DNA from: Nanobdellota archaeon
GTDB taxonomy: Archaea; Nanobdellota; Nanobdellia; Parvarchaeales; Parvarchaeaceae
DNA length: 36,119 nt
NCBI GenBank assembly: GCA_021836125.1
Contig: JAKBJF010000007.1
Span: 1 to 36,119 of the forward strand
Direction: 5' to 3'
The notes below the pieces were generated by a model. It searched no databases, had not been told where the DNA came from, and saw nothing but the letters and a program-made list of their open reading frames with translations. Positions 7,787-26,401 of this stretch are shown one piece after another (position 1 is the stretch's first letter; each line of letters opens with the position of its first letter). A program made the translations under genes and the position numbers.

Positions 7787-7789
7787 AAT

Positions 7790-8275: not shown

Positions 8276-8302
8276 GTTTTATAATAGTTAAAGAAGGGAA
8301 TG

Positions 8303-8312
8303 CTATATAAAG
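8303..8312 (-). promoter_or_regulatory. TATA box of the orf161-cdc48-scpA-scpB operon
   Basis: On the minus strand this reads CTTTATATAG, 28-37 bases before the orf161 ATG at 8275. The predicted transcript start is near 8282, giving a very short leader. It is the only good TATA-like element before the four minus-strand genes. Confidence 0.6.
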
Positions 8313-8406
8313 TTTACTATAAACCAAAATATGTAAAATTTACAACCTTAAAAACCGCCTGAAAATTCATTTAAAACTAAAACAAGGACTACCTTAAAGA
8401 AGTAAA

Positions 8407-13149: not shown

Positions 13150-13650
13150 ATGGATTTGGAGTCGATAAGCATAAAGAAACTTCCGCCAAGCAGATGGAAA
13201 GAATTTAGGGCTCTGCGTCTGGAAGCGTTAAAAAGCGAACCCACTGCATTCGGCAGCTCTTACGCAGAAGAAAAAAATCTCACAGAGAAAGAATGGAAAA
13301 GAAGAATAAAAACCGCATTATTCGCACTTGCAAACGGTAAACCCATAGGAATAATCGAATATGAATTCCATAAGAAGATTAAGGTCCAGCACATCGCGAC
13401 GTTACACAGCGTTTACTTAAACAATGCGTACAGATCTAAAGGCATCGGCATAAAGCTGTTAAAAGGGACCATATCGGTCATCAAGAAGAACAGGAAGATA
13501 CTAAGAGTGGATCTTTCAGTCAACGCAAAGCGGTTACCTGCGATTAAGCTATACGAAAGAAATGGTTTTAAGGTAGTAGGTTGCGAAAGAAAAGTATTGA
13601 AGGTAGACGGCAAATTTTACGATTTTCTTTTAATGGAAAAGTTCTTTTAA
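13150..13650 (+). CDS. GNAT-family N-acetyltransferase
   Basis: The 166-residue protein is a complete GNAT domain. It begins with KLPPSRWKEFRALRLEALKSEPTAFGSS, common in small-molecule acetyltransferases, then LFALANGKPIGIIEYEF (strands 2-3), TLHSVYLNNAYRSKGIGIKLL (strand 4 and acetyl-CoA loop), and RLPAIKLYERNGFKVVGCE (final helix and strand). The AIKLYERNGF block is diagnostic. The substrate is unknown. It is not closely similar to the acetyltransferase at 8473-9042. A 16-bp palindrome upstream may control it. Confidence 0.88.
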   Translation: MDLESISIKKLPPSRWKEFRALRLEALKSEPTAFGSSYAEEKNLTEKEWKRRIKTALFALANGKPIGIIEYEFHKKIKVQHIATLHSVYLNNAYRSKGIGIKLLKGTISVIKKNRKILRVDLSVNAKRLPAIKLYERNGFKVVGCERKVLKVDGKFYDFLLMEKFF

Positions 13651-13766
13651 ATTGTCTTTATTGAGATACATTTATAATTATGATCAATACATGGGCGTTA
13701 TGATATTCTCCTTCTAGGCAAGTTTATCTTTGGCTAATATATACGTGCAATATTTGCCACTACAGG

Positions 13767-13840
13767 GTAATATTAATCTAAGATACTTTCATAGTTAGTT
13801 GTGCAAGAGCACAACACCAAAGGACGGTGCAGAGGTGATT
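13767..13840 (+). promoter_or_regulatory. Promoter, leader hairpin and ribosome-binding site
   Basis: A TATA-like TAATATTAAT (13767-13778 region) predicts transcription from about 13797. The leader then opens with a perfect 7-bp hairpin, GTTGTGC-AAGA-GCACAAC (13798-13815), followed by a weaker CACC/GGTG pairing (13815-13829) and an AGGTGAT Shine-Dalgarno just before the ATG at 13842. As at 8437-8450, the message is predicted to start with a hairpin. Confidence 0.45.
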
Positions 13841-13841
13841 T

Positions 13842-14360
13842 ATGGAAGAAAAAACAAGTCTCGACGAAATTGTAGACAGAGAGAGCAAATTAAGTGAGAT
13901 AGCCGATTTTTGGTTGAATGTATTAGAAGGTCTGGGCGGGATTCCAATAGAGTCAGAGTATGTATCCGACGGGGATCGCTATGTGAATCTTGGTTCCCAT
14001 CCAGCGGATCATGGGTCTATAAACGACCTTAACGGCTTTTCCGTGCAGTATAACCTGAATTATTCTCGTGCGACCTTGAGAATCTCTTACCAAAAACAGG
14101 AAGTTTTAACCCTTTCCTTCCTTTGCAATCATCAACAATATCGTACTACATATGGAAGTTTTACGGTGTCCAAATATGACAAGAGCGGCGTATGGGAAGG
14201 CAAGCTTGATAAGATGCTCCCGAGAAGGGAATTGATAATAAAAGAGCAACTCGATAGGCGGCATCAGCGGGAACGCGATGCTACAGACAAACTGGCGGAA
14301 GCGACAAAAGAGAAAGAGTTAAAAGAAAGGACATTGGCTTTGGGAGCGTACCTTAAGTAG
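13842..14360 (+). CDS. Unknown protein, relative of the 16681-17211 gene product
   Basis: I recognise no named family. The 172-residue protein has a helical N-terminus (LSEIADFWLNVLEGLGG), a central beta-rich part (NGFSVQYNLNY..., ATLRISYQKQEVLTLSFLC) and a strongly charged coiled-coil-like C-terminus rich in Arg/Lys/Glu. The same plan and several matching positions occur in the protein encoded at 16681-17211: [DN]FW near the N-terminus, GFS, L-x-x-x-Y-x-[KQ]-x-x-[VL]-L, and W...L...L..R. The two are probably distant paralogues that flank the ABC transporter. The start is supported by an AGGTGAT sequence next to the ATG. No signal peptide or membrane span is visible. Confidence 0.7.
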   Translation: MEEKTSLDEIVDRESKLSEIADFWLNVLEGLGGIPIESEYVSDGDRYVNLGSHPADHGSINDLNGFSVQYNLNYSRATLRISYQKQEVLTLSFLCNHQQYRTTYGSFTVSKYDKSGVWEGKLDKMLPRRELIIKEQLDRRHQRERDATDKLAEATKEKELKERTLALGAYLK

Positions 14361-14415
14361 GAGCCCCAAACTTTTTTTATGATTCGAAGGCGACTTCATT
14401 TAATGCGCGATCCAT

Positions 14416-14437
14416 GCTTGGGGGCAAATCCTCAAGC
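14416..14437 (+). repeat. Intergenic stem-loop of unknown role
   Basis: GCTTGGGG (14416-14423) pairs with CCTCAAGC (14430-14437) in eight base pairs including one G-T, around a six-base loop. It lies 56 bases after the previous stop codon, downstream of a T-run at about 14371-14377 that could itself be the terminator. No T-run follows it, so it may be an RNA structure or chance. Confidence 0.3.
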
Positions 14438-14563
14438 GTGATTGCAAATTCGATGTTCAGATTTAAGAATTTTAGGTCTACTTTTTCACAAAATTGTAAA
14501 ACGAATGCGATTTAGTCTTTTTTATTAAATCGACCGTGTATAAGATAACGATTAATACAGAAT

Positions 14564-15529
14564 ATGTTTAGCTATAGTGTGATGACACCTTCGTTACAAG
14601 CTATCAATCTGACAAAAAGATACGGTCAATTTGTAGCCGTCTCAAAGTTAAATCTAAAGATCGAGGGGGCAAAATGCGTCGGGTTTCTAGGGCCAAACGG
14701 CGCAGGAAAGACAACAACCCTTAAACTTTTTACGGACATGATACGACCGACAGACGGTCACGCGCTTATAAACGGCGTAGACGTGCATGAAGAAAAGCGA
14801 AGGGCACTATCGTCCGTAGGAACGCTGATTGAGACGCCGGAAATATATCCTTCTTTGACCGAGAGAGAAGCCCTGCTTATGGTAGCAGAGCTCAAGGGGG
14901 TCCCGCGTAAGTTTTTGGAAAAAAGCGTAAGAGAAGTAGCTGATAAGGTAAGAATGAAAGAGTGGCTTGATCAGAAAGTCGGCAGGATGTCAAAGGGAAT
15001 GAAGCAGAGAATAAATATAGCAGCAGCTCTTTTGGGAGACCCGGATATAATCCTCCTGGATGAGCCAACTTCAGGACTTGATCCCCGCGGGATGAACGAA
15101 GTGAGAGAAATAATAAAGGACCTGAAGAAGGAGAGAAGACTGATATTCATGAGTTCCCATCTTCTAAGTGAAGTGTCCGAGATATGCGATGAGGTCGCCC
15201 TCATAAATCACGGTAAATTGATGGCATATGGGCCAATAGATGAGGTGACATCAAAATTCTCGGATAGTGGTGCGGCAATAATCGAGGTATCTGTGCTGAA
15301 GCCGCTGCAGGCTAATGTTATAAAAAAGATAAAAAAACTTCCAGGAGTAAAGAGCACAGAGGTTCTAGATACAAAAAGATTCAATCTGAGAGTCTCGGGT
15401 GACGTCGCTAAGACACAGCAGAAGCTGCTGGAAAGCCTTGTCAAACTGAAGATAGGAGTCATAAGCTTCAAGCCATCAACGTCGGCATTGGAAGAGACTT
15501 ACCTGAGCGTCTTTAAGGAGACGGCATAG
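14564..15529 (+). CDS. ABC-2 type transporter ATP-binding subunit
   Basis: The 321-residue protein has all ABC motifs: Walker A GPNGAGKTT, Q-loop region (VGTLIETPEIYPSLT), signature MSKGMKQR (the S of LSGGQ kept, second G changed), Walker B IILLDEPTSGLDP and switch His in MSSHLLSEV. Residues about 235-321 form a C-terminal extension common in exporter ATPases of the multidrug/lipid type. It energises the membrane subunit encoded one base downstream (stop ends 15529, next ATG at 15531). Substrate unknown. An in-frame ATG at 14582 would shorten it by six residues and is equally possible. Confidence 0.93.
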   Translation: MFSYSVMTPSLQAINLTKRYGQFVAVSKLNLKIEGAKCVGFLGPNGAGKTTTLKLFTDMIRPTDGHALINGVDVHEEKRRALSSVGTLIETPEIYPSLTEREALLMVAELKGVPRKFLEKSVREVADKVRMKEWLDQKVGRMSKGMKQRINIAAALLGDPDIILLDEPTSGLDPRGMNEVREIIKDLKKERRLIFMSSHLLSEVSEICDEVALINHGKLMAYGPIDEVTSKFSDSGAAIIEVSVLKPLQANVIKKIKKLPGVKSTEVLDTKRFNLRVSGDVAKTQQKLLESLVKLKIGVISFKPSTSALEETYLSVFKETA

Positions 15530-15530
15530 A

Positions 15531-16409
15531 ATGGAAACATTAAACTTAGGAAAAAAGAACGTGGTCCCGAATAGCATCGAGCAGACGCTGACGATGCTTA
15601 AGTACTCTTTTCTTGATTATATAAGATCCAGAAGGTTCTTCGTTCTGCTTATAATTGCCGTAGCGGTAGCTTCCATTCTTACGGGCGTTATAGGTTATTT
15701 CAGGCCTTCCGACTCACTATCGTCACCGCTGGCGTTCTACAGCAGTTGGTGGGGAGAAAGCGGCACGTTCATAATAATACTATCTGCGATATTCTTCGGA
15801 GGCGATGCTATATCCGGCGAATTCCAGAACAAGACGGGCTATTTCCTGGTGGGTAACCCGATACGTCGGTCTGCAATTTACATAGGGAAGTGGCTGGCGG
15901 CGCTTATAGCATCTCTTGCTGTTCTTGCGGTGTTCGCTCTGATGACAATAGGAAACGGGTTTTATTATTTCGGCTCGGCTGGCGTGCCAAACCAGTTTTT
16001 GGAATCGCTTGGTTTTTCCGTTTTGTACATGATTTCTGCCTTAGGACTAACCTTCTTCTTTAGTTCCATGTTTAAGAGTAGCACTGTCGCGATCCTTACC
16101 ACAGTCATACTGCTGCTGTTTGTCTTTTCGCTTGTGCAGACACTGGTAGCGGATCTGGCTCATGTGGAACCCTGGTTTATGATAACTTACGGTGCGCAGA
16201 TAATTGGAAACGTGCTGATGAACCCTTATCCGCCACCGACGAGTACTGTTAGCAGTTTTTCAGGCGGACCTCCCGGAGGATTCCGTGGCGGTTCATCGGT
16301 AGCAGCCTATAATGCTACGATACCTGAGGGGATAATAATCTTAGTCGTTTATTTCTTTGTTACTATGATAGTAGGGCTCGTGCTGTTCGAAAGAAAAGAA
16401 TTTACATAG
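15531..16409 (+). CDS. ABC-2 type transporter permease
   Basis: The 292-residue protein has six predicted membrane spans. The first is FFVLLIIAVAVASILTGVIG after a 35-residue cytosolic start, and the last is IIILVVYFFVTMIVGLVLF. A GDAISGEFQNKTGYFLVGNP loop after span two matches the ABC-2 permease pattern, in which this cytoplasmic stretch couples to the ATPase. A glycine/proline-rich extracytoplasmic loop (SSFSGGPPGGFRGGSSVAAY) lies before the last span. With the preceding ATPase it forms a complete exporter, probably as a dimer of each subunit. The transported compound cannot be told from sequence. It is followed by a short frameshifted gene. Confidence 0.9.
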   Translation: METLNLGKKNVVPNSIEQTLTMLKYSFLDYIRSRRFFVLLIIAVAVASILTGVIGYFRPSDSLSSPLAFYSSWWGESGTFIIILSAIFFGGDAISGEFQNKTGYFLVGNPIRRSAIYIGKWLAALIASLAVLAVFALMTIGNGFYYFGSAGVPNQFLESLGFSVLYMISALGLTFFFSSMFKSSTVAILTTVILLLFVFSLVQTLVADLAHVEPWFMITYGAQIIGNVLMNPYPPPTSTVSSFSGGPPGGFRGGSSVAAYNATIPEGIIILVVYFFVTMIVGLVLFERKEFT

Positions 16410-16489
16410 TCGGCACCATCCTTCTACAGACTCATGAAAAGGACAGGTTTAGGTTTTAAATACAAAAAAGCATCTATAAATAACTGGCA

Positions 16490-16716
16490 ATGGCAGAGAA
16501 GTATACTAGCCTAGAAAATATTCTAAGAGACGTCTCAAACGATAAATTGATGGTTCTGAAGCTTATGAACTGGCGTTTGACCCGATTTTCGGAATAAACT
16601 ATAATCCAGTGCTTACAGAGGCTAATAAAATAAAACTTAGCGAAACATATTATACGTGTGCGTTTGAGGAGTTATGTCGCTCAACTGTGCTCAAAGCCAT
16701 TAAGAGAGTTTTTTAG
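16490..16716 (+). pseudogene. Frameshifted small gene of unknown function (two frames joined)
   Basis: A start at 16490, with TTTTAAATAC (16454-16463) about 30 bases before it, opens MAEKYTSLENILRDVSNDK and then meets a stop at 35 codons. At 16544-16546 a shift of one base back (equivalent to one missing A in AAA) opens a second frame. That frame reads IDGSEAYELAFDPIFGINYN and continues to a TAG at 16714-16716, for a joined product of 75 residues. Its N-terminus resembles the 13842 protein (MEEKTSLDEI versus MAEKYTSLENI). The break is a real mutation or a sequencing error in a short A-run. Its end overlaps the end of the convergent gene at 16681 by 36 bases. Confidence 0.5.
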
Positions 16717-17211
16717 CTCCTGCGTTCTTTGCCAATCGCGCTCGCTCATCTCCGCGAGCATCTTTCGCTTTCGCATCTTTGCTTTACCTATCCCTTCTTC
16801 ACGCACTCTTCTGTGTTCGTAGGCTTTCTTGTCTCTTTCTATTATGCCTCTTTGTTTTAGGAGCCTGCGCATTGCCATACGCCACTGTTTGTCATTGTCT
16901 GAGAAATTTACTTGGTATTCATATTTACTATGACCGGAATAATTGACCTTAAGCACAAGTTTCCCTTTATAATATAGCCCTAATCTGTCCCATTCGCCGT
17001 AAGCACCGGAAAAACCATGGTCCAAGTCCGCAGTAAAACCGTGGTAATTTCCAAGATACCATTTGACTTCATTATTGCGGGATGAGTTTAAACCATAATC
17101 CTTTGTAGTAGAGCCGGTACCCAAACGGACAGCCGCTTTATCCCAAAAATTGATTATCTTAAAAAGCTCCTCTTCATTTTCAATCAACCCTTCCAGCTCA
17201 GAATTATCCAT
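16681..17211 (-). CDS. Unknown protein, relative of the 13842-14360 gene product
   Basis: The 176-residue protein has a helical N-terminus (EELFKIINFWDKAAVRLG), a central region rich in Gly/Tyr and beta strands (HGFSGAYGEWDRLGLYYKGK), and a very basic C-terminal helix (KKAYEHRRVREEGIGKAKMR). It shares plan and scattered positions with the protein at 13842-14360 and lies on the other side of the ABC exporter, in opposite orientation. A minus-strand ACTATAAATT near 17245 and GGGTG before the ATG support the start. The basic tail could bind nucleic acid (inference). No family is recognised. Confidence 0.65.
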   Translation of the reverse strand: MDNSELEGLIENEEELFKIINFWDKAAVRLGTGSTTKDYGLNSSRNNEVKWYLGNYHGFTADLDHGFSGAYGEWDRLGLYYKGKLVLKVNYSGHSKYEYQVNFSDNDKQWRMAMRRLLKQRGIIERDKKAYEHRRVREEGIGKAKMRKRKMLAEMSERDWQRTQELKNSLNGFEHS

Positions 17212-17226
17212 AACAACACCCTTTAA

Positions 17227-17427
17227 ACTTTAGGCACTGCTACAATTTATAGTTTGGAAGGTCATAGAAATGATAACATAGAATTACGTAATCGGATAAT
17301 GTCGATAACGCCAGAAGAGCGTAAACGGTTGGGAATAAACAAAAGCACGCTATGGTATAGGCAAAAGGCTATAAAGGAAGGAAATAAAAGTAAGGTCTAT
17401 AGCAAAACGTTGCAGAAGTTATCTTAG
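17227..17427 (+). pseudogene. Remnant resembling the C-terminal end of an archaeal Cas1
   Basis: A 66-codon open stretch (after a stop at 17224, no convincing start, ending in TAG at 17425-17427) reads ELRNRIMSITPEERKRLGIN, then KSTLWYRQKAIKEG and KVYSKTLQKLS. The pattern of a short helix, G-[IF]-x-K-x-T-L-[WH]-Y, a basic helix and a final x-x-x-L-x-x-[LV] is what I recall from the C-termini of several archaeal Cas1 integrases. The rest of Cas1, Cas2 and any CRISPR array are absent nearby. An ATG at 17299 could make a 42-residue stand-alone peptide, so a small DNA-binding gene is the alternative. The assignment is from memory of family sequences and is uncertain. Confidence 0.45.
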
Positions 17428-17436
17428 TAAAATTTA

Positions 17437-19077
17437 CTAACCACCTTGAGATAAGGTTTCAACCTTGTTCTTAAAATCATTAAAATCAACTAGGTTTAAT
17501 TTATTATCACTTAAACCTATAATTTTAACTTCAAGTTGTTTTTCTTTATCATACAAAATTCCCGCTCTATGCTTTTTTAGTCTATCTTCTATTTCTTCTA
17601 AGTGAATCAATGCAGATATCGGTCTAAGAATTACTTCAATCTTTTTATAATAGTCATTCCCTTTATATTTTAAAATTGTTTCATCGAATTTCTTCATTGG
17701 CTCCAAAGTGCCAACAAACGTTTCGATTTCTATAGCTGTAGACACACCATTTTCAGTATATGTAATGTCGGGCACAATATTGCCGTCTAAAGATTTCGCT
17801 TCGCTTTTAAGTATGCCCCGCTCTGTTAAATCTGTTAAAAATTTATATAAATCATTTCCAAACTTCTCTTTTTCATGATAATCTCGCCACAATGCCATGA
17901 TTAGTATTGAATATGTAACTACTTTTAATGGAAACTGCGTTACATCGGTTTCATTGTCTCTGTTTCGTCGAACAAACATAGAAAATTCATACATCAACTT
18001 AGAAAGCGACATTTGATAATTTTCTAAACCTTGTTTAAAACCACCTATTGCGCCTAATATCCCGTAAACAAGCGCATCATTTTTATTCTCCTGATTTAGT
18101 AAAAGGATGTCTATTGCGTCTTCCGTAGCCTTTTGTAATTCAGTTTTAGTGTAATTAGATATTTTGTTAGGTACAATAATAATTAGTATACCAAATGTTT
18201 GTAATAAACCGACGTTAAGGCGAGGCACCGTGGCCTTAATGAACTTGTCCAAGTCCGTTTTTTCGTTACAATCCCATACTTCTATCTTGTTATCTAAGCT
18301 AAATTCATCTAAAGAAAATTCTGTAAGCCTGTCAACTAAAACATTATCTTCATCATCAACTGGTTTACGGAAGGTTATTGACGGATATTCCGATTTTAGC
18401 TCTCTAAACAGCTCTTTCAATGCGTATATTATTGCATAACGCCAGTCGTTATCTTGTTCTGTCCTGTTTTCTTTGCTTTCTGCTAATATAACTATTATCG
18501 GCTTTCTATTTCTATCACTGGTTCCCCTAGGAAAGCGTTCTGATTTTTCTTTTGGATTATTAGGATTGTCGTTTACAATACCGCAAACAGATTCAAAATC
18601 TGGTATTCCCTCCATAACATTATGTGCAATCCTGTAAATTAAAAAACTTCTTTTAATTAATTTCTTGCTTAAACTGAGTCTTACTCCTTTTGTGTAGTTG
18701 ATAGTAAACGACGTAATCGACTTTATAATTTTATTTAGAGTTTGAAAATGCGTATACTGCACGTCTTTGATAGTTAAAGTTAATTTGCGTTCTGGCAACG
18801 TCTCTTTCAACTGTTGTTTTTGTAGTGAGGTATTCAATACGCCCGTCTTAGTGTCATTTGATTTTAATATTCTAATTGTCAATTTATTATGTAAACTAAT
18901 TCGTGCATTTGCATTAATTTTACTTGTTTTTATATTGAGTTTAGGCAAAAGCTGCTGTTTATAATTGGTTATAAAGTAATGTAAGTTACTTTTCCGATAT
19001 TTATCGGATTTAATTTTGCTCCTTTGCTTTCTTTTTCTTCTCTTATAAGGTTTTGTTTTTTGCTTAGTTTTTTCCAT
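17437..19077 (-). CDS. Unknown protein with a possible PD-(D/E)XK-like C-terminal domain
   Basis: The 546-residue protein begins with a very basic tail (MEKTKQKTKPYKRRKRKQR...), typical of nucleic-acid binding. A middle part has alternating strands and helices (KPIIVILAES, IEVWDCNEK, FGILIIIVPNK) suggestive of a Rossmann-like fold. A helical part follows, then about residues 421-546, where PDITY (D437) and AIEIET (E450, E452) resemble the D...E-x-K core of PD-(D/E)XK nucleases with the Lys position taken by Glu. No ATP-binding motif is seen. The gene is much more AT-rich than the core genes around it. Its start overlaps the end of the upstream 422-residue gene by 14 bases, so they form one operon. 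It is probably a mobile-element or defence gene; this is inferred from context. Confidence 0.7.
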   Translation of the reverse strand: MEKTKQKTKPYKRRKRKQRSKIKSDKYRKSNLHYFITNYKQQLLPKLNIKTSKINANARISLHNKLTIRILKSNDTKTGVLNTSLQKQQLKETLPERKLTLTIKDVQYTHFQTLNKIIKSITSFTINYTKGVRLSLSKKLIKRSFLIYRIAHNVMEGIPDFESVCGIVNDNPNNPKEKSERFPRGTSDRNRKPIIVILAESKENRTEQDNDWRYAIIYALKELFRELKSEYPSITFRKPVDDEDNVLVDRLTEFSLDEFSLDNKIEVWDCNEKTDLDKFIKATVPRLNVGLLQTFGILIIIVPNKISNYTKTELQKATEDAIDILLLNQENKNDALVYGILGAIGGFKQGLENYQMSLSKLMYEFSMFVRRNRDNETDVTQFPLKVVTYSILIMALWRDYHEKEKFGNDLYKFLTDLTERGILKSEAKSLDGNIVPDITYTENGVSTAIEIETFVGTLEPMKKFDETILKYKGNDYYKKIEVILRPISALIHLEEIEDRLKKHRAGILYDKEKQLEVKIIGLSDNKLNLVDFNDFKNKVETLSQGG

Positions 19078-20332
19078 TTATTACATCACAAAGTGCTTCC
19101 GCGTAGTGTGTATTGGGTAACGTTATTTTAATTTCGACTATTTCCTTTTCAGTGGTTTTACAAATATCCGAAACAAAACCGATCTTAGCAAAGGTTTTTA
19201 ATAATTCTATAGTTTGTTCCTTTGTTACACTCCTATTTTTAAGTTCAGTTTTTCTGCCGTAATCGCCCCTATATCCAAACCACTTGTTAGAGATGGAAAT
19301 TAATCTATCGTTTTTATTAAAAGCTAGATACAGGTCTCTCGAAGGTTCGTAAGAGTCTATCGCACAGGATATCGCAGCTAGGACTTCTCTCTCAAAATCG
19401 ATATTTCCATTAACTCCTATTTTGTATTGTGTTAATCTCAGCTCTTTATTTGGTCGATTTAAAACCTCCCACAATTCCATTAAGTTTTCAATCACACTAG
19501 TAGGTCTCTTTTCTTTTTTATTATAATCTATATAGTCACTGCAGGGTTCAAATGCAATCATAGCCTTTGGAGAGGCTTCGATTTTATTAAACTCTTTGTC
19601 TACAAACGAAAAGCCAAATAATTCTAGAAATTTTCTCAGGTTATTATCTTTTGCAGAGAAATACTTAGTAGACAATTCTTCAATAGTAGATAAATTTAAA
19701 GTGAAGAGAAATCTTACATATTCATTAAGTATTAAGTTGGTAATTTCATTTGGGGTCTGTTCTCTAACAAGAAGCTCTATGCCACTCTGTTTGTTATCCA
19801 TTTCTGATGGTAGCAGGGCGTTAAATTCCTCTCCTGTAAGTTCTAAATACCCCCTATTGGGGGGCATGCCTTTATTCCTTAACTTGTCACAAAGTCTGGT
19901 TGTTTTTTCATTCAGCTCCTTTATATATACTATCATTGGCGATTTATCTTTTATCCCGACCTTTATAGAATTATTTTTATAAAAATCCTGCTGGCATGCT
20001 AAGCTTTCATTAAAGCTATCTATATTGCCTGCGTAAAGCCCAAAGACATTATACATAAATTTAGCAAATCCATTGGGATCCTCACTACCGCCAAATAACA
20101 TTATGGCAATTTTATCTGCTGGAAGTCCGAGTCGTTCAGAAAATTGTTCATTTGTCACTTTTTTGTGCAACATCTCATAGAAATCGAGAAATTTCTTTGT
20201 ACTGTTATTTAGGGCAAAGATTGGTTCAAATAGTTTTTCTCGCCAATTTTCTAGGTTAGATACTTCCTCTGCCTGCAGTTCATTATTGAAAGTATTATTT
20301 TCTGAGGGCCTTTCTCTTGGATTATCTTCCAT
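19064..20332 (-). CDS. Unknown protein, first gene of the AT-rich accessory operon
   Basis: I do not recognise this 422-residue protein. It is soluble, with no membrane span, signal peptide or Walker motif. Residues 60-80 (TNEQFSERLGLPADKIAIML) have the spacing of a helix-turn-helix and could bind DNA. The rest mixes charged helices with short strands. The C-terminal 70 residues (RSVTKEQTIELLKTFAKIGF...) look like a winged helix or small alpha/beta domain. It is translationally coupled to the downstream 546-residue gene. Upstream lie two mutually exclusive hairpins (20412-20447). Base composition, isolation from core genes and closeness to tRNA-Gln and a possible Cas1 remnant suggest acquired DNA. 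Confidence 0.7.
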   Translation of the reverse strand: MEDNPRERPSENNTFNNELQAEEVSNLENWREKLFEPIFALNNSTKKFLDFYEMLHKKVTNEQFSERLGLPADKIAIMLFGGSEDPNGFAKFMYNVFGLYAGNIDSFNESLACQQDFYKNNSIKVGIKDKSPMIVYIKELNEKTTRLCDKLRNKGMPPNRGYLELTGEEFNALLPSEMDNKQSGIELLVREQTPNEITNLILNEYVRFLFTLNLSTIEELSTKYFSAKDNNLRKFLELFGFSFVDKEFNKIEASPKAMIAFEPCSDYIDYNKKEKRPTSVIENLMELWEVLNRPNKELRLTQYKIGVNGNIDFEREVLAAISCAIDSYEPSRDLYLAFNKNDRLISISNKWFGYRGDYGRKTELKNRSVTKEQTIELLKTFAKIGFVSDICKTTEKEIVEIKITLPNTHYAEALCDVINGKN

Positions 20333-20411
20333 GTACTATTAGAGAAACTTTAGCCTTAAAAGGTAGTCCAATTTCCGAGAGATAGCACTGAAAAGAGTAC
20401 CATTTGCGTGA

Positions 20412-20447
20412 GATGGCATTATCCCGCCATCTTTATTGAGGGATAAT
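20412..20447. promoter_or_regulatory. Two mutually exclusive hairpins
   Basis: GATGGC (20412-20417) pairs with GCCATC (20426-20431) around an eight-base loop. That loop, ATTATCCC (20418-20425), is itself the exact complement of GGGATAAT (20440-20447). Only one of the two stems can form at a time. The element lies between the YdeI-type gene end and the start of the 422-residue gene, about 80-115 bases before its ATG. It could be a terminator, a switch or a protein-binding site. Confidence 0.45.
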
Positions 20448-20483
20448 ACTATCGACCTAAAATGAGACTAAAGGTTGTAAAGA

Positions 20484-20795
20484 TTATTTATCTTTTCTCT
20501 TCTTGTCCAACAGTATCCATTTTACTGATTGGCTTAATGATTTATCTTTTCTATGAGTACATCCTATCCAACAGCAAGGTCTTCGCATTCCTTCTTTCAA
20601 CTCAGAAACGACTCTTGTAACATGCTCATCTCTTGTTTGTTGCTGCTTTGGGGAAATCGTCCAGCAAATCCACTCGTTTCTTGCTAAGGGCGTAATGTCT
20701 TCCCATTTTTCGAAAGCTTTCTTGTCTGTCGATATCGCCTCTTTTAAGTCATTTGGTATCTTGTGCACTGTTCCGGAAGATATTTTTTGTGTCAT
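20484..20795 (-). CDS. YdeI/OmpD-associated family protein
   Basis: The ATG at 20795 gives 103 residues. An in-frame TTG at 20810 is less likely because a palindromic TATA (ATTTATAAAT, 20816-20825) lies 25 bases before the ATG. The protein matches the C-terminal YdeI/OmpD-associated domain: HKIPNDLKEAI, then FEKWEDITPLARNEWICWTI, TRDEHVTRVVSELKEGMRRP and CCWIGCTHR. The ARNEWICW and RRPCCW blocks are highly characteristic. The molecular role is unclear; some bacterial members are linked to stress or peptide resistance. The family is mostly bacterial, so gene transfer is likely. Cys residues in CCWIGCTH could bind metal (inference). Confidence 0.85.
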   Translation of the reverse strand: MTQKISSGTVHKIPNDLKEAISTDKKAFEKWEDITPLARNEWICWTISPKQQQTRDEHVTRVVSELKEGMRRPCCWIGCTHRKDKSLSQSVKWILLDKKRKDK

Positions 20796-20815
20796 AACTG
20801 ACAAAATCAAGAGAA

Positions 20816-20825
20816 ATTTATAAAT
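20816..20825 (-). promoter_or_regulatory. TATA box of the YdeI-type gene
   Basis: The palindromic ATTTATAAAT is centred about 25 bases before the minus-strand ATG at 20795 and decides between that start and the upstream TTG at 20810. Confidence 0.6.
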
Positions 20826-20903
20826 CTTTTATATTTTGGCTATTTAATAAAGTAATCCAAGCAGTAGTGCAATTTCTAACTGCTGTATATATCCCCAAAT
20901 TAC

Positions 20904-20976
20904 AATAGCCCCGACCGGATTTGAACCGGTGTTTCAGGCTCCAAAGGCCTACGTGCTTGACCGCTACACTACGGGG
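20904..20976 (-). tRNA. tRNA-Gln (anticodon TTG)
   Basis: On the minus strand the acceptor stem AGCCCCG pairs with CGGGGCT, followed by discriminator A. The anticodon arm is TAGGC-CTTTGGA-GCCTG, with anticodon TTG. The T-arm is ACCGG-TTCAAAT-CCGGT and the D-arm contains TAGCGGTCAAG. CCA is not encoded. Its 3' end points towards the AT-rich accessory genes, the usual orientation when elements integrate at a tRNA. I see no second copy of the tRNA 3' end in the window to mark an attachment site. Confidence 0.93.
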
Positions 20977-21019
20977 CTTCGTATAGATAATATTGAGATT
21001 TTCACTACTAATATCTTGC

Positions 21020-22108
21020 TTACGAGACAGAAGGATCGTATTCGTATTTAGAAGACTTAAGCTTTTTACGTAAACTGTTGAAATCTTTTTCGTCCTCATA
21101 AAACAGCGGCTTAAGCTTAGTTAAGAAATCATCGATCGATTCAGTCGAATAAACGGTCTTTCCGTCTATAGTGGAAGGATAACATATCTTGTCGTTTTTT
21201 ACTTCCGACAACTGTAGTAAATGCAAGATCATATGACGCCCTTCCATGCTTTTATCCCTTGCTTTGTCTAGCAGGAAGTCCGAATATTTTACTTGTTTTC
21301 CGTTGAAGTAAACTTCTATATTCTTTGCATCGAATTTAATTAGTTCACTTGACGCTGTAGTACTAAGTTCTTCTCCAATCTCATCTAAAACTTTTTCATA
21401 AAGTTCTCCGGTAACCGGCCTGACGGTTTTTTTGCCCTTATCAATAATATAAAACTCTTTCATCGGTCCATATTCCGATTGAGATCCATCGAGCATATTA
21501 TCCAAGCTTGATGGCGCGGTCGCATCGTCATTGCGAGCCTTCTCAAGTATCTCGGTGTTGTCTTTTAGAATTAACAAAGTCGTTTCGATAATTTCTTCAT
21601 TGGCATAATCCATAAACAAGCATCTTTTGACTTTTTCTGAAACGAAATTATTTTTCCCAGCATTGAAGCCTATTGGCTTAAGATTCTTAATTTTCGAATC
21701 TATTTTTAATTTTAAGCCGACGGCGTAGACCGAGGGCAATTCGTTTCCTTTACATATTTTTGAGCCGTTTATCGGATCTATTGTCACGGCACCCGTGTCG
21801 GCATCGTAGTATTTTACCGGGCCGGCCGTTTCCAGTGGCGTAGTATCTCCTTTCATCTTGTTATTCGTGTGCAGTACATCTAACATGGAACAGGCTCCTC
21901 TCACCCTCGAGTTTTTGAGGTCGTATTCCAGTGCTATTGAATAAAGCAGTGGCTCTGAAATAGCGGATACCATATCTTTCAATGACGGAGCTTCATTTTT
22001 TGAAAGATTCAGCAAGTTTTCGGAATCCGCAGCGCATTCCAATATTTTTTCTAGATAGTCAACGTGCTGTCCTTTTTGTTCATCGCAGTATTCGGCGTTT
22101 TCTGCCAT
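21020..22108 (-). CDS. Unknown acidic protein beside tRNA-Gln
   Basis: From the ATG at 22108 the protein has 362 residues; a TTG at 22135 would add nine. It is soluble, acidic and rich in charged helices, with no signal peptide, membrane span or nucleotide-binding motif. Possible landmarks are YYDADTGAVTIDPINGSKIC, VKRCLFMDYANEEIIETTLL and the C-terminal CYPSTIDGKTVYSTESIDDF. I recognise no family. A minus-strand TTAATATAGT near 22185 could be the promoter. It lies 43 bases upstream of tRNA-Gln on the same strand and is divergent from the small coiled-coil gene at 22275. Confidence 0.7.
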   Translation of the reverse strand: MAENAEYCDEQKGQHVDYLEKILECAADSENLLNLSKNEAPSLKDMVSAISEPLLYSIALEYDLKNSRVRGACSMLDVLHTNNKMKGDTTPLETAGPVKYYDADTGAVTIDPINGSKICKGNELPSVYAVGLKLKIDSKIKNLKPIGFNAGKNNFVSEKVKRCLFMDYANEEIIETTLLILKDNTEILEKARNDDATAPSSLDNMLDGSQSEYGPMKEFYIIDKGKKTVRPVTGELYEKVLDEIGEELSTTASSELIKFDAKNIEVYFNGKQVKYSDFLLDKARDKSMEGRHMILHLLQLSEVKNDKICYPSTIDGKTVYSTESIDDFLTKLKPLFYEDEKDFNSLRKKLKSSKYEYDPSVS

Positions 22109-22244
22109 ATCTTCACGGAAGTTACGAACAGGCAAAAAGCATGCCTATTTCGCACCAGTACAGCTACTTTAGAGAGGAGACTTACTATATTAAGCTTTGT
22201 CCGTAAAATGCGGTTTTTTACACAAACGAAAAGCAGGGTGGCAC

Positions 22245-22254
22245 GTTTATAAGC
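22245..22254 (+). promoter_or_regulatory. TATA box of the small coiled-coil gene
   Basis: GTTTATAAGC is centred 25 bases before the ATG at 22275, giving a leaderless transcript. Confidence 0.55.
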
Positions 22255-22274
22255 TATAACAAATAATCAATCCT

Positions 22275-22568
22275 ATGCAGAGTGAAGACGTGTTTATAGG
22301 CGTGCCAATGGCCTCGATAGAGCTAAAACACATAGATTTGCAGACAAAATCGGAAGCCCTAGCGGCTTTGCACGAAGACATAGACGAGGACATACAACAG
22401 AAAAAGGACCTAATGGACACGCTGGCTAAAAAATTCGAAAAATTAGACGAACTTTTGCGCAGGCTGTTTGAAGATCTTAACAACGAGAGTATGAAGGGTG
22501 CTATAAAACCCGCTTTCAGGGACAAACTGGGCATAGAGGAACTCGAAAGCCAATTGGGCATGAAGTGA
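22275..22568 (+). CDS. Small coiled-coil protein of unknown function
   Basis: The 97-residue protein is dominated by a heptad-rich helix from about residue 18 to 70 (DEDIQQKKDLMDTLAKKFEK, LDELLRRLFEDL), strongly predicting a coiled coil. It ends GIEELESQLGMK. No family is recognised. A well-placed TATA box and a position directly before tRNA-Leu support it as a real gene. It might be a structural or adaptor protein. Confidence 0.7.
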   Translation: MQSEDVFIGVPMASIELKHIDLQTKSEALAALHEDIDEDIQQKKDLMDTLAKKFEKLDELLRRLFEDLNNESMKGAIKPAFRDKLGIEELESQLGMK

Positions 22569-22606
22569 TATCCTTTTAATTTAGGAAAAATAGTTATAAT
22601 TCTTAT

Positions 22607-22707
22607 GCAGGGATAGCGAAGCCTGGTTAAACGTGACAGACTCAAGAGCCACGTTTGAGCCATCTGTTCCCTTTGTGGGTTCGGGAGTTCAAATCTCCCT
22701 CCCTGCA
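22607..22707 (+). tRNA. tRNA-Leu (anticodon CAA) with a 15-base intron
   Basis: Acceptor arms GCAGGGA and TCCCTGC pair fully, followed by discriminator A. The T-arm is GGGAG-TTCAAAT-CTCCC, and a long variable arm (TCCC-TTTG-TGGG) marks a class II tRNA. The anticodon stem is ACAGA/TCTGT and the loop reads CTCAAG-[intron]-A, giving anticodon CAA. Removing the intron gives an 86-base tRNA. CCA is not encoded. Confidence 0.92.
22647..22661 (+). other. Archaeal tRNA intron (15 bases) after position 37
   Basis: The intron AGCCACGTTTGAGCC sits at the canonical 37/38 position. CTCAA before it pairs with TTGAG inside it, forming the short central helix of a bulge-helix-bulge structure for the archaeal splicing endonuclease. 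With a 4-bp central helix, cuts after G37 and before A38 fit a relaxed form of the motif. It is close to the lower size limit for archaeal tRNA introns. Confidence 0.85.
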
Positions 22708-22742
22708 AGTTTTCGTGTTTTGACGTCTTAAAAACTGCAGAA

Positions 22743-25142
22743 TCAGATATCTGAGATTTTTACGATAGAATTTCCGGAAGGCTTGCTTATAATTATGTTC
22801 CTGTCCGCTATGTTTTTCATCGTGTCTTCGTGTGTTACGATTATTATCTGTTTTATCCCCTTTATCTTAGTTATCGCGTCAGAAAGTGCGTTTATGTCTT
22901 CTTTGTCGAGCCCGGAAGTAGGCTCATCCATTATCAATAGCTCGTTTTTAGATATGCCACCAAGTGTTGACGCTATAGACGAAAGAGCTATTCTGTATGC
23001 CAGTGCGACAGACGTTTTTTCTCCTCCTGATAGAGACCTTGCATCCATAACTTCGTTTTCGGCGATAACATTAAGGTTATAGTCCCTGTCTATGTCAACG
23101 ATATAATCTGTATTGCTCCTTATCTCATTGAATTTGATCTGAAAATTTGATTTAAACTCCTCTATGAACCTGTCGCGAACATATCCGCGTATGTCTTTTA
23201 TGTCGTCTCTGAGACCGCTGAGTTTTTCATATAAAGATTCATCGCTTCTTATCTTGGCCTCTAAGGACTTCCTTTTAGTTATCTTTTCTTTCAAAGCCGT
23301 AAATTGCCCATTGAGTTCCTGTAGCTCAAGATTTTTTATTTCCATTTCCCGCTTTGATTCTGCGCTTTCCGTGGAAAGTTTGTTATATACTTCCCGAGCC
23401 TGTCTAAGGTCGGATTCAAGCACACCTACCTGCGCCCCGTCGAATTTTATTTCTTCCAATTCCTTTTCCAGGATTGCCATTTCTTCTTCAATGCTGCTAT
23501 TCGACTTTTTCAGTGTAACCAGCATGTTCTTGGCCGCAGATATCTCGTTTATTTTATTTCTTATGTTCACTAGCTCTTCAAGTTCCTTATCTATCGCGGA
23601 TATCTGTTTGTCTAATCCACTTATTTCCGACACGATCAGGTTCATTTGCTCGCTGTGATTTTCAAGATCGGACTTTTTGCTTGCGATATCGATTTTAAGC
23701 GCCTTTTCCTTTGAAATCTCAAATGAATTTAACGCGTTTTCTATTTCCACACCTAATTTCCCAAGATTCAATTCTAGCGTCTTTTTTGGTATTTTATTCG
23801 CACCGATTAGATTTTTGTATCTTTCTATTTCGCCTTTACATTTTGATATTTTCTCTGCGTACTCTTTCTGCAGGTGCGAGTCGTCAAGAAGCTCACTGCC
23901 GCACATTTTACAAATTTTATCCGAAAGGGACTGCTCCTTCTCTCTATTCAGCGAATCGATGGTTTCGTTTAGCTGTTCTATTCTGCCGGATAACTCGTCA
24001 GCGTCCGGCTCGTTTTTTCTCTCCGAAATCGACGCTTTTAGGCTTTCTTCTGTTCTTCTAAGGGCTTCGAGCTTTGATTCATACTCTTTTATGCTCATGT
24101 CCAGTTCGTCCTTTGTTTTCGACATGGCTGTCAATTCTGAGTTTGTTTTATAGAAGGACTCGCGTATCTTGTTCAGGCCCCTTTCTTTTTCCTGTTTTAG
24201 CGTGTTCTTTTCACGCCTTTCGTTTATGAGTGCAGTTTCCTTTTCAGGCGTCGTTTTAAGCTCATTTATTTCCGTGTCTTCCAGCTTCTTTTCCAGTTCC
24301 TTTTCCTCTATTTTGTTTTTCTGCAAAGTGGCGCGTTTTTCATCTAACCTGGAAGCTGCGATGTAGTGTTTTTCCTTCGCTTCCATCGCGAATTTTATTT
24401 CCGATTCTGTCTTATTTATGTTTGAAGATGCCAGTCCGAGCTCCCTTTCGAGTACGTCGCGTTTCGCGTTAAGCTCTTCGAGTCTTAATCCTATATCCGA
24501 ACGGCGTTTTTCCAGTTTTATCAATTCGTTCTCCCCTTCTATGAACAATATCGCCTTCTTGTCGGCATCAAGTTCATTTTTAATCTTGTCGATAATGGCT
24601 TTCATGTAATCGTAAGTCTTGGCATATCTATCCAGCTGTAGGAGGGAGTCTATGTACTCCTGTTTTTCTTGCGTCGTCTCGAATATCAGGTTCTTTAATT
24701 CGTCCTGTTTTATGTACGTTATCGCTTCGAAAGCACGCCTTGGGGACTCTGATTTTATGCCGAGTAAGCTGGCAATATAAACGTTCAGATCGGTGGCACG
24801 ATTCTGCAGGTCCACTTGTCGGCCTTCCTTAAGCACCTTGTTCATGGAATCGTCATTTCTTACGTTTTCTTTTATCCTTTTCAGCCCGCGCTTTACGGTA
24901 TAAGACTGGTCGTCTTCCTTTACGCCTAGCGCCAGAGAACCGTTTTCTGTCCTTCTTCTAAGGATCATGCCAGCGTCGCTTTTGTCCGCTATCTTGCCGA
25001 ATAAACAGTACTCGATCGACATTAGGATTGAGGATTTTCCGCTTCCGGTGTTTCCGGTTATTACGTTTATTCCGTTTGTGAACTCTATGCGTGAGTCCGT
25101 ATGGCTTCTTACGTTTTTCATTTCTACGTATTCTAATATCAT
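22743..25142 (-). CDS. rad50: Rad50 DNA double-strand-break repair ATPase
   Basis: The 799-residue protein starts with MILEYVEMKNVRSHTDSRIE and has Walker A GNTGSGKSS at about 31-39. Long coiled-coil arms are interrupted by a zinc hook (ICKMCGSELL, CxxC). Near the end come the ABC signature SLSGGEKTSVALAYR and Walker B LLIMDEPTSGLD, followed by the switch IVTHED. Two Rad50 copies join through the hook and bind Mre11 to tether and process DNA ends in homologous repair. Its ATG overlaps the mre11 stop (ATGA), so the pair is coupled. The usual archaeal partners HerA and NurA are not adjacent. Confidence 0.95.
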   Translation of the reverse strand: MILEYVEMKNVRSHTDSRIEFTNGINVITGNTGSGKSSILMSIEYCLFGKIADKSDAGMILRRRTENGSLALGVKEDDQSYTVKRGLKRIKENVRNDDSMNKVLKEGRQVDLQNRATDLNVYIASLLGIKSESPRRAFEAITYIKQDELKNLIFETTQEKQEYIDSLLQLDRYAKTYDYMKAIIDKIKNELDADKKAILFIEGENELIKLEKRRSDIGLRLEELNAKRDVLERELGLASSNINKTESEIKFAMEAKEKHYIAASRLDEKRATLQKNKIEEKELEKKLEDTEINELKTTPEKETALINERREKNTLKQEKERGLNKIRESFYKTNSELTAMSKTKDELDMSIKEYESKLEALRRTEESLKASISERKNEPDADELSGRIEQLNETIDSLNREKEQSLSDKICKMCGSELLDDSHLQKEYAEKISKCKGEIERYKNLIGANKIPKKTLELNLGKLGVEIENALNSFEISKEKALKIDIASKKSDLENHSEQMNLIVSEISGLDKQISAIDKELEELVNIRNKINEISAAKNMLVTLKKSNSSIEEEMAILEKELEEIKFDGAQVGVLESDLRQAREVYNKLSTESAESKREMEIKNLELQELNGQFTALKEKITKRKSLEAKIRSDESLYEKLSGLRDDIKDIRGYVRDRFIEEFKSNFQIKFNEIRSNTDYIVDIDRDYNLNVIAENEVMDARSLSGGEKTSVALAYRIALSSIASTLGGISKNELLIMDEPTSGLDKEDINALSDAITKIKGIKQIIIVTHEDTMKNIADRNIIISKPSGNSIVKISDI

Positions 25143-26302
25143 TGTCGCATCGCATCCTCTATTCTTTTTATAACTCCGCTTATGTCCGATTTGGTCTCTG
25201 CGGCAGACATCATAAAATCTGCAAGTTCTATCTCCTTATCGCTGTAGCCTTTCGCCTTTAGAAATTCCTTTTCTACGCTGGCTATGTCTTTGCTTTGTAG
25301 TGTTATGCTGGTCGCGTCTTTATCGGACAATTTAGACGAATTTACGCTGACGTAAACATAGCCGTTTGATAACGCGCAGTTCTTTACGGATGCGACGTCA
25401 AGTTCTCCCCTTTGCCCTCTCATTTTTCCCTCTAACTTTATTATCAGCAGTTTGCCGTCATTCTTTTTCATTAGAGCCTTCGCCTCCGATTCTATCTCGT
25501 CGGCGCTTCTGCCATCGCAGTTTATTCTGAATATGTCCCGCTCTCTAGTCTTCAATTTTACATATTCCATCCCAGTTATCCCTTCGCTTCCGTAATCCAC
25601 CACGTAGAAGCCCCTGTCAGGGTTGTCGACCATCTCTTTCTCGTCGCAGTATTCGGTCGAGCCAGGGTATTGTATAACTCCTCCATTATAGTGTATGTTG
25701 TCCCTGTGACCGTGCCAATGCCCCGCAGCGTAATAGTTAAACCCGGTTGGGAGGCTTTCCGTGTCCAGGTCTTTGAACTGCTCGCCCAGCGAGGATATCG
25801 TATGATGGAATAGGAAGATTTTTATCCAGGCAGGATCTGAAGACGCTATTTTTAGTTTTTTGAATATTTCGTCCTCTACCCTGCTTCTTTTTCCCCTAAT
25901 CCCGCATATGAACGCGTTATGGTAGGTTTCCCCTCTCAGCATCACGCCTTCGTCGGTATATTTTATATAACGTTTTGAATTCAGATTCACGAGGAGCCCG
26001 TTTCTGTCGAATAATTCGACTATGCTGTCCTCCTCTCCCATGCCGATATCGTGGGAACCAGGAACAATGAAAATTTTTATACCGTTTTGTCTTAGCTTAT
26101 TTAGTTCGTCTGTCACGAATAGAAGGTCGTTTAGCGAAGGATCTCCTTCGTTAAAAAGATCGCCAGCATGCACTATAAAATCAGGTCTGTTTTTTATAGC
26201 ATAGTCTATAAGCTGTCTGAACGAATCCTTTACGTCCTCGTTTCGTCGCTCGTCCTTGTAGACTTTCCCTATATGCGTATCGCCGACGTGTATAAATCTC
26301 AT
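25139..26302 (-). CDS. mre11: Mre11 nuclease
   Basis: The 387-residue protein has the phosphoesterase motifs in order: VGDTHIG (D8 and H10), VHAGDLFNEGDPS, PGSHDIG, LFHHT and GHWHGH. These coordinate two Mn ions for 3'-5' exonuclease and endonuclease activity. The third motif is GSHD rather than the usual GNHD: the metal-ligand Asn is replaced by Ser while the catalytic His is kept. The C-terminal 120 residues form the capping and Rad50-binding regions. It is the first gene of the mre11-rad50 operon with a TATA box about 31 bases upstream. Confidence 0.95.
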   Translation of the reverse strand: MRFIHVGDTHIGKVYKDERRNEDVKDSFRQLIDYAIKNRPDFIVHAGDLFNEGDPSLNDLLFVTDELNKLRQNGIKIFIVPGSHDIGMGEEDSIVELFDRNGLLVNLNSKRYIKYTDEGVMLRGETYHNAFICGIRGKRSRVEDEIFKKLKIASSDPAWIKIFLFHHTISSLGEQFKDLDTESLPTGFNYYAAGHWHGHRDNIHYNGGVIQYPGSTEYCDEKEMVDNPDRGFYVVDYGSEGITGMEYVKLKTRERDIFRINCDGRSADEIESEAKALMKKNDGKLLIIKLEGKMRGQRGELDVASVKNCALSNGYVYVSVNSSKLSDKDATSITLQSKDIASVEKEFLKAKGYSDKEIELADFMMSAAETKSDISGVIKRIEDAMRQ

Positions 26303-26328
26303 ATCACTAACTAAATTATGTGTTTTGC

Positions 26329-26338
26329 CTATAAATTA
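26329..26338 (-). promoter_or_regulatory. TATA box of mre11-rad50
   Basis: On the minus strand this is AATTTATAGG, centred about 31 bases before the mre11 ATG at 26302. The divergent thioesterase gene starts at 26402 and must use a different, weaker AT-rich site. Confidence 0.5.
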
Positions 26339-26401
26339 TTTTTATGGCGTTCTCGTGCAAACTATTAATTCCTTGATCGTGAAATTAGTATTGTAGGCGA
26401 T

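What the first reader, a model, noticed from the sequence alone, without database searches (positions are those of the whole stretch)
17437..20332. AT-rich two-gene operon of unknown proteins: candidate new defence or mobile-element module
Two large, translationally coupled proteins of no recognised family, one with a very basic N-terminus and a PD-(D/E)XK-like C-terminus (D437, E450, E452), the other with a possible helix-turn-helix. Composition differs sharply from core genes (13 of 60 G+C at 17461-17520 against 29 of 60 at 6001-6060). They lie between a possible Cas1 remnant and a tRNA gene. A nuclease-like protein plus a DNA-binding partner in an island is a common defence layout.
Basis: inference. 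Interest (0 to 1): 0.7.

Follow-up and report, generated by a model that had tools for sequence, protein, structure and literature searches.

The report
Two-gene archaeal nuclease defence module
The two unknown genes are a divergent copy of a two-gene unit found patchily across archaea (a probable DNA-cutting enzyme plus a partner) that no searched library names, and it sits where a sister strain carries a restriction enzyme, so it is probably an undescribed defence system against viruses or plasmids.

Summary
The two ORFs are real and overlap by 14 bp. Neither matches Pfam, NCBIfam, PADLOC or the PDB. They are divergent members of a conserved two-gene operon, A (helical partner; window P0002) then B (nuclease; window P0001). 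Profiles built without the window recover P0001 (E=9e-12) and P0002 (E=2e-11). A lies directly upstream of B in 40 other loci, from Thermoproteota, methanogen/haloarchaeal relatives and one bacterium. The predicted helix-turn-helix was not found.

Defence evidence is by location. A same-species genome has near-identical flanks but carries a type IIG restriction-modification enzyme in exactly this slot, with equally foreign composition. Relatives sit inside a BREX-5 operon, beside type II restriction-modification genes and beside a Piwi-domain gene. The family is patchy (9% of Thermoproteota, 1 of 371 genomes of its own phylum) and can decay. Systematic neighbour enrichment was weak. Activity is untested, the middle domain is unidentified and structure prediction failed. 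I rate a nuclease-based defence module at 0.62.

The parts
19064..20332 (-). Gene A (P0002, 422 aa): partner protein, predicted mostly helical, first gene of the operon
   Evidence: Profile of 29 family members without the window hits it at E=2.1e-11; 47.7 bits against at most 5.0 for 200 shuffles. hhalign E=3.9e-10 over residues 25-246.
17437..19077 (-). Gene B (P0001, 546 aa): predicted PD-(D/E)XK-type nuclease, second gene of the operon
   Evidence: Profile of 8 family members without the window hits it at E=9.3e-12; 39.8 bits against at most 2.8 for 200 shuffles; hhalign E=6e-9 over 302 columns.
19064..19077 (-). 14-bp overlap of A and B reading frames (translational coupling)
   Evidence: 18 of the 31 A-B pairs overlap.
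18778..19077 (-). Basic N-terminal region of B (residues 1-100)
   Evidence: pI 10.9, charge about +24. Long variable N-terminal regions are general in the family, but their pI ranges from about 4.4 to 11.8.
18043..18507 (-). Middle domain of B (residues 191-345), conserved in the family; alpha/beta-like by eye, function unknown
   Evidence: Aligned in A3/A7; no PDB sequence match for the profile.
17437..17937 (-). C-terminal nuclease domain of B (residues 381-546)
   Evidence: K385, E426, D437, E450, E452, T453, G456 fall on conserved columns. P0001 has Q381 where 32 of 33 have H.
17767..17769 (-). Codon of D437, invariant catalytic aspartate
   Evidence: D in 33 of 33
17722..17730 (-). Codons of E450-I451-E452, the (D/E)-x-(E/K) motif
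   Evidence: Columns E27/D6 and E26/K7 of 33
17254..17409 (+). Remnant: C-terminal tail of a cas1 gene, left edge of the variable slot
   Evidence: identity to the same-species genome falls from 97-100% to 83% and 55% inside it.
17319..20886 (.). Exchangeable cargo segment of about 3.57 kb replaced as a unit between two genomes of one species
   Evidence: Flanks 97-100% identical in G147, which carries a type IIG restriction-modification enzyme here instead.
20906..20978 (-). tRNA-Gln(TTG), right edge of the slot
   Evidence: identity to G147 resumes 19-20 bp beyond its 3' end.
20484..20810 (-). Short ORF of 108 aa inside the cargo; whether it belongs to the system is unknown

Best explanation
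A-B is a two-gene, nuclease-based defence module, horizontally exchanged among archaea, of a family that no searched library names. SHOWN: homology of both genes to the family, conserved order and overlap, catalytic-motif conservation, patchy presence, foreign composition, and exchange with a type IIG restriction-modification enzyme in one chromosomal slot. INFERRED: B is a metal-dependent DNase. Its C-terminal PD-(D/E)x(E/K) domain cuts DNA; the variable N-terminus and conserved middle domain hold, target or regulate it. A is made in step with B, forms a complex with it and acts as sensor or regulator. No methyltransferase belongs to the module, so self-protection cannot rest on the module's own DNA modification. 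B is therefore most likely kept off by A and released by an invader signal, or directed at DNA structures or ends found in invaders. In some loci a proteasome-like or HExxH protease gene abuts the pair, so activation by proteolysis is plausible for those variants.
For: Family and pairing: E=9e-12 for B, 2e-11 for A, with no B hit and only one marginal A hit (E=0.07) among 587 control and genus ORFs. A directly upstream of B in 30 other loci and in 10 of 10 full-length, non-edge loci fetched later. Motif: D 33/33, E/D, E/K, K 32/33, E 31/33. Slot exchange: L023 carries a type IIG enzyme (PADLOC 3.1e-108, Pfam Eco57I 1.4e-35) between the same flanks; both cargoes have 33-34% G+C against 42% flanks. 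Relatives in defence loci: in L201, A-B lies inside a BREX-5 operon (PglZ 92% identical to annotated BREX-5 PglZ, BrxC-like 88%, PglX-like PDB BrxX E=9e-61), while Halorubrum has only an 83-aa-sized gene between the same two BREX genes. L129 has a DNA methylase (5.8e-44) and an endonuclease-like ORF directly upstream; L130 has Piwi (6.5e-6) and HATPase/NOV_C neighbours. Proteasome-like gene directly downstream of B in L135, L136, L142. Patchiness: 31/349, 19/247, 1/371, 1/151 genomes; stop-ridden copy in G794.
Against: No activity data. A systematic PADLOC scan of 150 neighbours against 150 control ORFs gave only weak enrichment, and methyltransferase-motif ORFs occur in 2 of 41 case loci against 0 of 20 controls, which is not significant. 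Many pairs sit among ordinary genes. A Pyrodictiaceae clade has B alone in conserved synteny next to genes that look housekeeping. P0001 has Q where 32 of 33 relatives have H, and uses ExE rather than ExK. Both structure models failed.
Confidence: 0.62

Rival explanations
1. Toxin-antitoxin or addiction module: B is a DNase toxin, A its neutraliser, kept because loss of the pair is harmful; any defence effect is secondary.
For: Two overlapping genes with partner first, nuclease second, and horizontal mobility. No modification gene in the module.
Against: Both proteins are large (about 350-480 and 460-780 aa), unlike classical toxin-antitoxin pairs. B alone occurs stably in Pyrodictiaceae. A-B inside a BREX-5 operon and swapped with a restriction-modification enzyme point to defence.
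Confidence: 0.15
2. Mobile-element function: A-B serves replication, recombination or maintenance of integrated elements rather than the host.
For: Foreign composition, tRNA-adjacent slot, a relative on a Halorussus plasmid.
Against: The cargo has no integrase, replication or structural gene. No family member was recovered in viral contigs with the motif patterns tried or in phage records by tblastn of P0001 and P0004; only one plasmid relative was found.
Confidence: 0.12
3. Accessory DNA repair or recombination nuclease of mainly thermophilic archaea.
For: Most members are in Thermoproteota; the Pyrodictiaceae copies of B lie in one conserved, apparently housekeeping context; a NurA-like hit and a HerA-like ORF lie near one pair.
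Against: Patchy presence (at most 9% of genomes), a pseudogene, absence from 243 near-complete relatives in the own phylum, and replacement by a restriction-modification enzyme in the same species.
Confidence: 0.09
4. Assembly or binning artefact: foreign contig joined into this genome.
For: The genome is a 35-contig, 66%-complete assembly; the pair is absent from all close relatives.
Against: Both junctions fall exactly at the natural slot edges used by G147's own cargo, and both flanks are near-identical to G147.
Confidence: 0.02

Closest known systems
PD-(D/E)XK nuclease superfamily
   Same: Invariant D, then (D/E)-x-(E/K), with a conserved upstream E and K in the C-terminal domain of B
   Different: P0001's branch has ExE instead of ExK, and no PDB or Pfam nuclease family is hit by sequence or by the profile
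Shedu (SduA)
   Same: From general knowledge and PMC12839542: a PD-(D/E)XK domain behind a variable N-terminal part, sometimes inside BREX loci
   Different: Two obligatory genes here; no SduA or DUF4263 match in Pfam or PADLOC
Nuclease-protease pairs of Hachiman and AVAST (PMC12799240)
   Same: Some A-B loci have a protease-type gene abutting the nuclease (proteasome-like, or HExxH motif)
   Different: Different protease class (trypsin-like there); most A-B loci, the window included, have none; no sequence match
Auxiliary or backup nucleases embedded in BREX loci (PMC12839542)
   Same: A-B lies inside a BREX-5 operon in one haloarchaeon
   Different: Elsewhere A-B is independent of BREX; helical partner A is of no known family
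Type II and IIG restriction-modification
   Same: Nuclease cargo in the same chromosomal slot of the same species
   Different: No methyltransferase in the module

Membership tests
A-B family described here (unnamed) | Gene B profile match over middle and nuclease domains | tested here: met
   E=9.3e-12, profile without the window; hhalign 302 columns
A-B family described here (unnamed) | Gene A homologue directly upstream on the same strand | tested here: met
   P0002 E=2.1e-11; 14-bp overlap
PD-(D/E)XK nuclease superfamily | Conserved D and (D/E)-x-(K/E) catalytic residues | tested here: met
   D437, E450, E452 on conserved columns; seven relatives keep K at the last position
PD-(D/E)XK nuclease superfamily | Restriction-endonuclease-like fold | tested here: inconclusive
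   Single-sequence AlphaFold models unusable, pLDDT 31 and 36; no PDB profile hit
PD-(D/E)XK nuclease superfamily | Metal-dependent DNA cleavage | not testable with these tools
   Needs protein
Shedu | SduA / DUF4263 domain | tested here: not met
   No Pfam or PADLOC match for P0001 or for the six relatives of B scanned
Restriction-modification system | Cognate methyltransferase in the module | tested here: not met
   None in the window cargo; not conserved in other loci
BREX | BrxC, PglX, PglZ core genes with the module | tested here: not met
   None in the window cargo; only L201 lies within a BREX-5 operon
Known defence systems in PADLOC 2.0.0, including PDC candidates | Match to any PADLOC model | tested here: not met
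   best is a chance-level Cas8b hit at 0.008 to one A protein
Toxin-antitoxin module | B toxic alone, neutralised by A | not testable with these tools
   Needs expression
   No helix-turn-helix family hit; profile PDB hits are generic coiled helices
Antiviral defence system | Protects cells against virus or plasmid | not testable with these tools
   Location evidence only

The most novel reading that the evidence does not exclude
A-B is a previously unnamed archaeal immune system with its own principle: an N-terminally variable PD-(D/E)XK nuclease controlled by a dedicated helical sensor partner, without DNA modification or guide RNA, in some lineages switched on by a proteasome-like protease. 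It moves between archaeal phyla and plugs into BREX operons and tRNA-side hotspots bordered by Cas1 remnants.
Probability: 0.35. Interest if true: 0.85.

Novelty: new variant of a known kind. Interest (0 to 1): 0.64.

Why it matters
Archaeal defences beyond CRISPR and restriction-modification are poorly known; [quoted passage not shown] A conserved two-gene module found in about 9% of sampled Thermoproteota genomes and invisible to current defence libraries would be a concrete addition, with named catalytic residues to mutate. Its exchange with a restriction enzyme in one slot, and its place inside a BREX operon, make a direct resistance test worthwhile. The profiles could be used to annotate many hypothetical proteins.

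Tried and rejected
Direct searches with P0001 and P0002 found no relatives; the only lead was a weak hit (E=0.2) to a Halorussus plasmid protein, which opened the family through a motif scan. Weak hits in the own phylum with a 2-row profile were chance. PDB profile searches found nothing. The viral-contig motif scan returned unrelated ligase- and helicase-like proteins. PADLOC neighbour enrichment was weak. Considered and rejected: fusion of A into the 1403-aa Halorussus protein; use of the tree to place P0001, because its branch is too long; a local Ntn-hydrolase profile did not confirm a proteasome-like ORF in the genus. Literature: no open paper searched describes this pair, but the arCOG tables and most subscription papers could not be searched, so an uncharacterised arCOG for these genes may exist.

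Full report
THE OBSERVATION. The two ORFs exist at the stated coordinates: 19064-20332(-), 422 aa (P0002, here gene A), and 17437-19077(-), 546 aa (P0001, here gene B), with a 14-bp overlap. They lie between a Cas1 C-terminal remnant at 17254-17409 and tRNA-Gln at 20906-20978. Pfam, PADLOC, PHROGs, NCBIfam and PDB do not recognise either protein; one sub-threshold Pfam hit to P0002 (Phage_TAC_3, 21.1 bits against a 22-bit cut-off) is the nearest. A helix-turn-helix was not found.

FINDING THE FAMILY. P0001 and P0002 have no detectable single-sequence relatives in the own class or family, in genome contigs (P0001 only), in viral contigs or in phages (P0001 only). One weak plasmid hit (E=0.2, residues 427-492, 33%) in a Halorussus protein suggested the motif PDI...EIETxxGT. 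A degenerate DNA scan for that motif in GTDB genomes found homologous proteins in Alkanophaga, Thermoproteaceae, Caldivirga, Pyrodictiaceae, Archaeoglobaceae, a Euryarchaeota MAG, a Thermoprotei MAG and bacterium HR23. They share one plan: a variable, often repetitive N-terminus, a middle domain that looks alpha/beta by eye, and a C-terminal domain with that motif.

THE PAIR IS CONSERVED. Directly upstream of B lies a second conserved gene, A. A profile of eight B proteins, without the window, finds P0001 at E=9.3e-12. A profile of 29 A proteins, without the window, finds P0002 at E=2.1e-11, with shuffles at most 5 bits against 47.7. Among 587 ORFs of control and genus loci neither B profile hit anything, and the A profile gave one marginal hit (E=0.07). 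A lies directly upstream of B in 31 of 41 B ORFs, the window included. The exceptions are a Pyrodictiaceae clade, gene fragments or split genes, and contig edges. In a second set fetched afterwards, A was upstream in 10 of 10 intact loci away from contig edges. Variants with two A-type genes exist (L129, L135, L142, L152).

THE NUCLEASE. In the 33-row alignment the column of D437 is D in 33 of 33; E450 is E in 27 and D in 6; E452 is E in 26 and K in 7; E426 is E in 31; K385 is K in 32. The K-bearing members (L137, L138, L139, L145, L146, L147, L149) have the textbook (D/E)xK. This supports a PD-(D/E)XK nuclease with an ExE variant in the window's branch; ExE active sites are known in BamHI (own knowledge). 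P0001 departs at Q381, where 32 of 33 have H. No fold was obtained.

THE SLOT. Genome G147 is of the same species. Window 13800-17407 and 20863-26400 match it at 99-100%. Base-level comparison puts the left breakpoint inside the Cas1 tail near 17319 and the right one near 20886, next to the tRNA 3' end. Between them G147 carries an 877-aa type IIG restriction-modification protein (PADLOC 3.1e-108; Pfam Eco57I 1.4e-35), an RNase H protein and a 122-aa ORF. Both cargoes have 33-34% G+C against about 42% around them. In other members of the genus, Cas1 tails border further variable cargo, some of it restriction-modification-like by sequence reading (L028, L037; not confirmed by profile search).

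RELATIVES IN DEFENCE LOCI. In L201 (G883) the order is BrxB-like 193 aa, BrxC-like 1280 aa, an HTH protein, a nucleotidyltransferase-like protein, A, a 91-aa ORF, B, PglX-like 1420 aa, PglZ 730 aa. PglZ is 92% identical to annotated BREX-5 PglZ, the ATPase is 88% identical to the gene beside annotated BrxB, and the methyltransferase matches BrxX structures at 9e-61. In Halorubrum ezzemoulense only an 83-aa-sized gene separates the same two BREX genes, while Natrinema thermotolerans has an annotated ATP-dependent endonuclease and another gene before pglZ. L129 has a DNA methylase (5.8e-44) and a further endonuclease-like ORF directly upstream of A; L134 has a methylase-like gene in the same direction; L130 has a Piwi-domain protein (6.5e-6, just below the Pfam cut-off) and a HATPase/NOV_C protein. 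A proteasome-like gene directly follows B in L135, L136 and L142, and an HExxH-containing ORF directly precedes A in L063, L069 and L126 (by eye).

HOW STRONG IS THE DEFENCE CASE? The exchange in the slot and the BREX embedding are strong single cases. The systematic test was not: 150 neighbours against 150 control ORFs differed only slightly (two type II methyltransferases and two GajA/OLD-like against kinases and helicases). Distribution is patchy: 31/349 Thermoproteota, 19/247 in Alkanophaga's phylum, 1/371 in the own phylum, 1/151 in the HR23 phylum, and one copy is full of stops (G794). This fits an accessory, horizontally moving trait.

MECHANISM. The most likely reading is a DNase (B) with a coupled partner (A) that restrains or aims it. 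As no methyltransferase travels with the pair, recognition of self by its own DNA modification is unlikely. Either A senses an invader and releases B, or B acts on DNA structures typical of invaders. Protease genes beside some pairs recall the nuclease proenzymes of PMC12799240, but the proteases belong to another class, and the window has none.

NOVELTY. PD-(D/E)XK nucleases are common in defence (PMC12839542 lists them as the most frequent auxiliary effectors of BREX). New here is the specific two-gene family, its archaeal spread and the absence of any named model for either gene in the libraries searched. An uncharacterised arCOG may already group these proteins; that could not be checked. 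I therefore file it as a new variant of a known kind.

Noticed in passing
window 17254-17409; L023:8435-8587; L025:5585-6115; L026; L028; L029; L030; L032; L034; L037: Cas1 C-terminal tails of 27-177 aa are scattered through the genus at the edge of variable cargo, often within 10 kb of a tRNA-Gln; in L034 a Cas1 tail runs straight into the start of another Cas1. They may mark insertion or recombination points.
   Followed up: partly
L024:8486-9715 (G147); L035:5496-6671 (G128): Full-length Cas1 genes with no CRISPR-like direct repeats in 6.5 kb around them; possible solo Cas1 or casposon-type gene.
   Followed up: partly
L120:7456-8841, L121:7428-8801, L123, L151:6709-8103: Pyrodictiaceae carry B without A in a conserved, apparently housekeeping neighbourhood, as if domesticated.
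   Followed up: partly
L209 (Natrinema thermotolerans CP031304.1) 13439-17663: A BREX-5 operon contains an annotated ATP-dependent endonuclease and a large unnamed gene before pglZ, on the opposite strand: another embedded candidate defence module.
   Followed up: no
L045/L211 (Halorussus pelagicus plasmid), P0004: A 1403-aa protein ends in the B-type domains, with a long N-terminus of no known family, behind two unnamed large genes and a DUF3883 gene.
   Followed up: partly
window 16684-17211 (-): P0003, 176 aa, no family match, sits beside the Cas1 tail in both genomes of the species and has a 49% relative in L042.
   Followed up: no
window 22607-22707 (+): Second tRNA found by Rfam (101 nt, intron-sized) that ARAGORN missed.
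   Followed up: no
L207 (G794) 7388-8323: B gene broken by nine stop codons, no intact A beside it: decay of the module.
   Followed up: no
L028:5733-6416: ORF that by eye resembles a proteasome-like Ntn-hydrolase in the Cas1-tail/tRNA-Gln slot of G173; a small local profile did not confirm it.
   Followed up: partly
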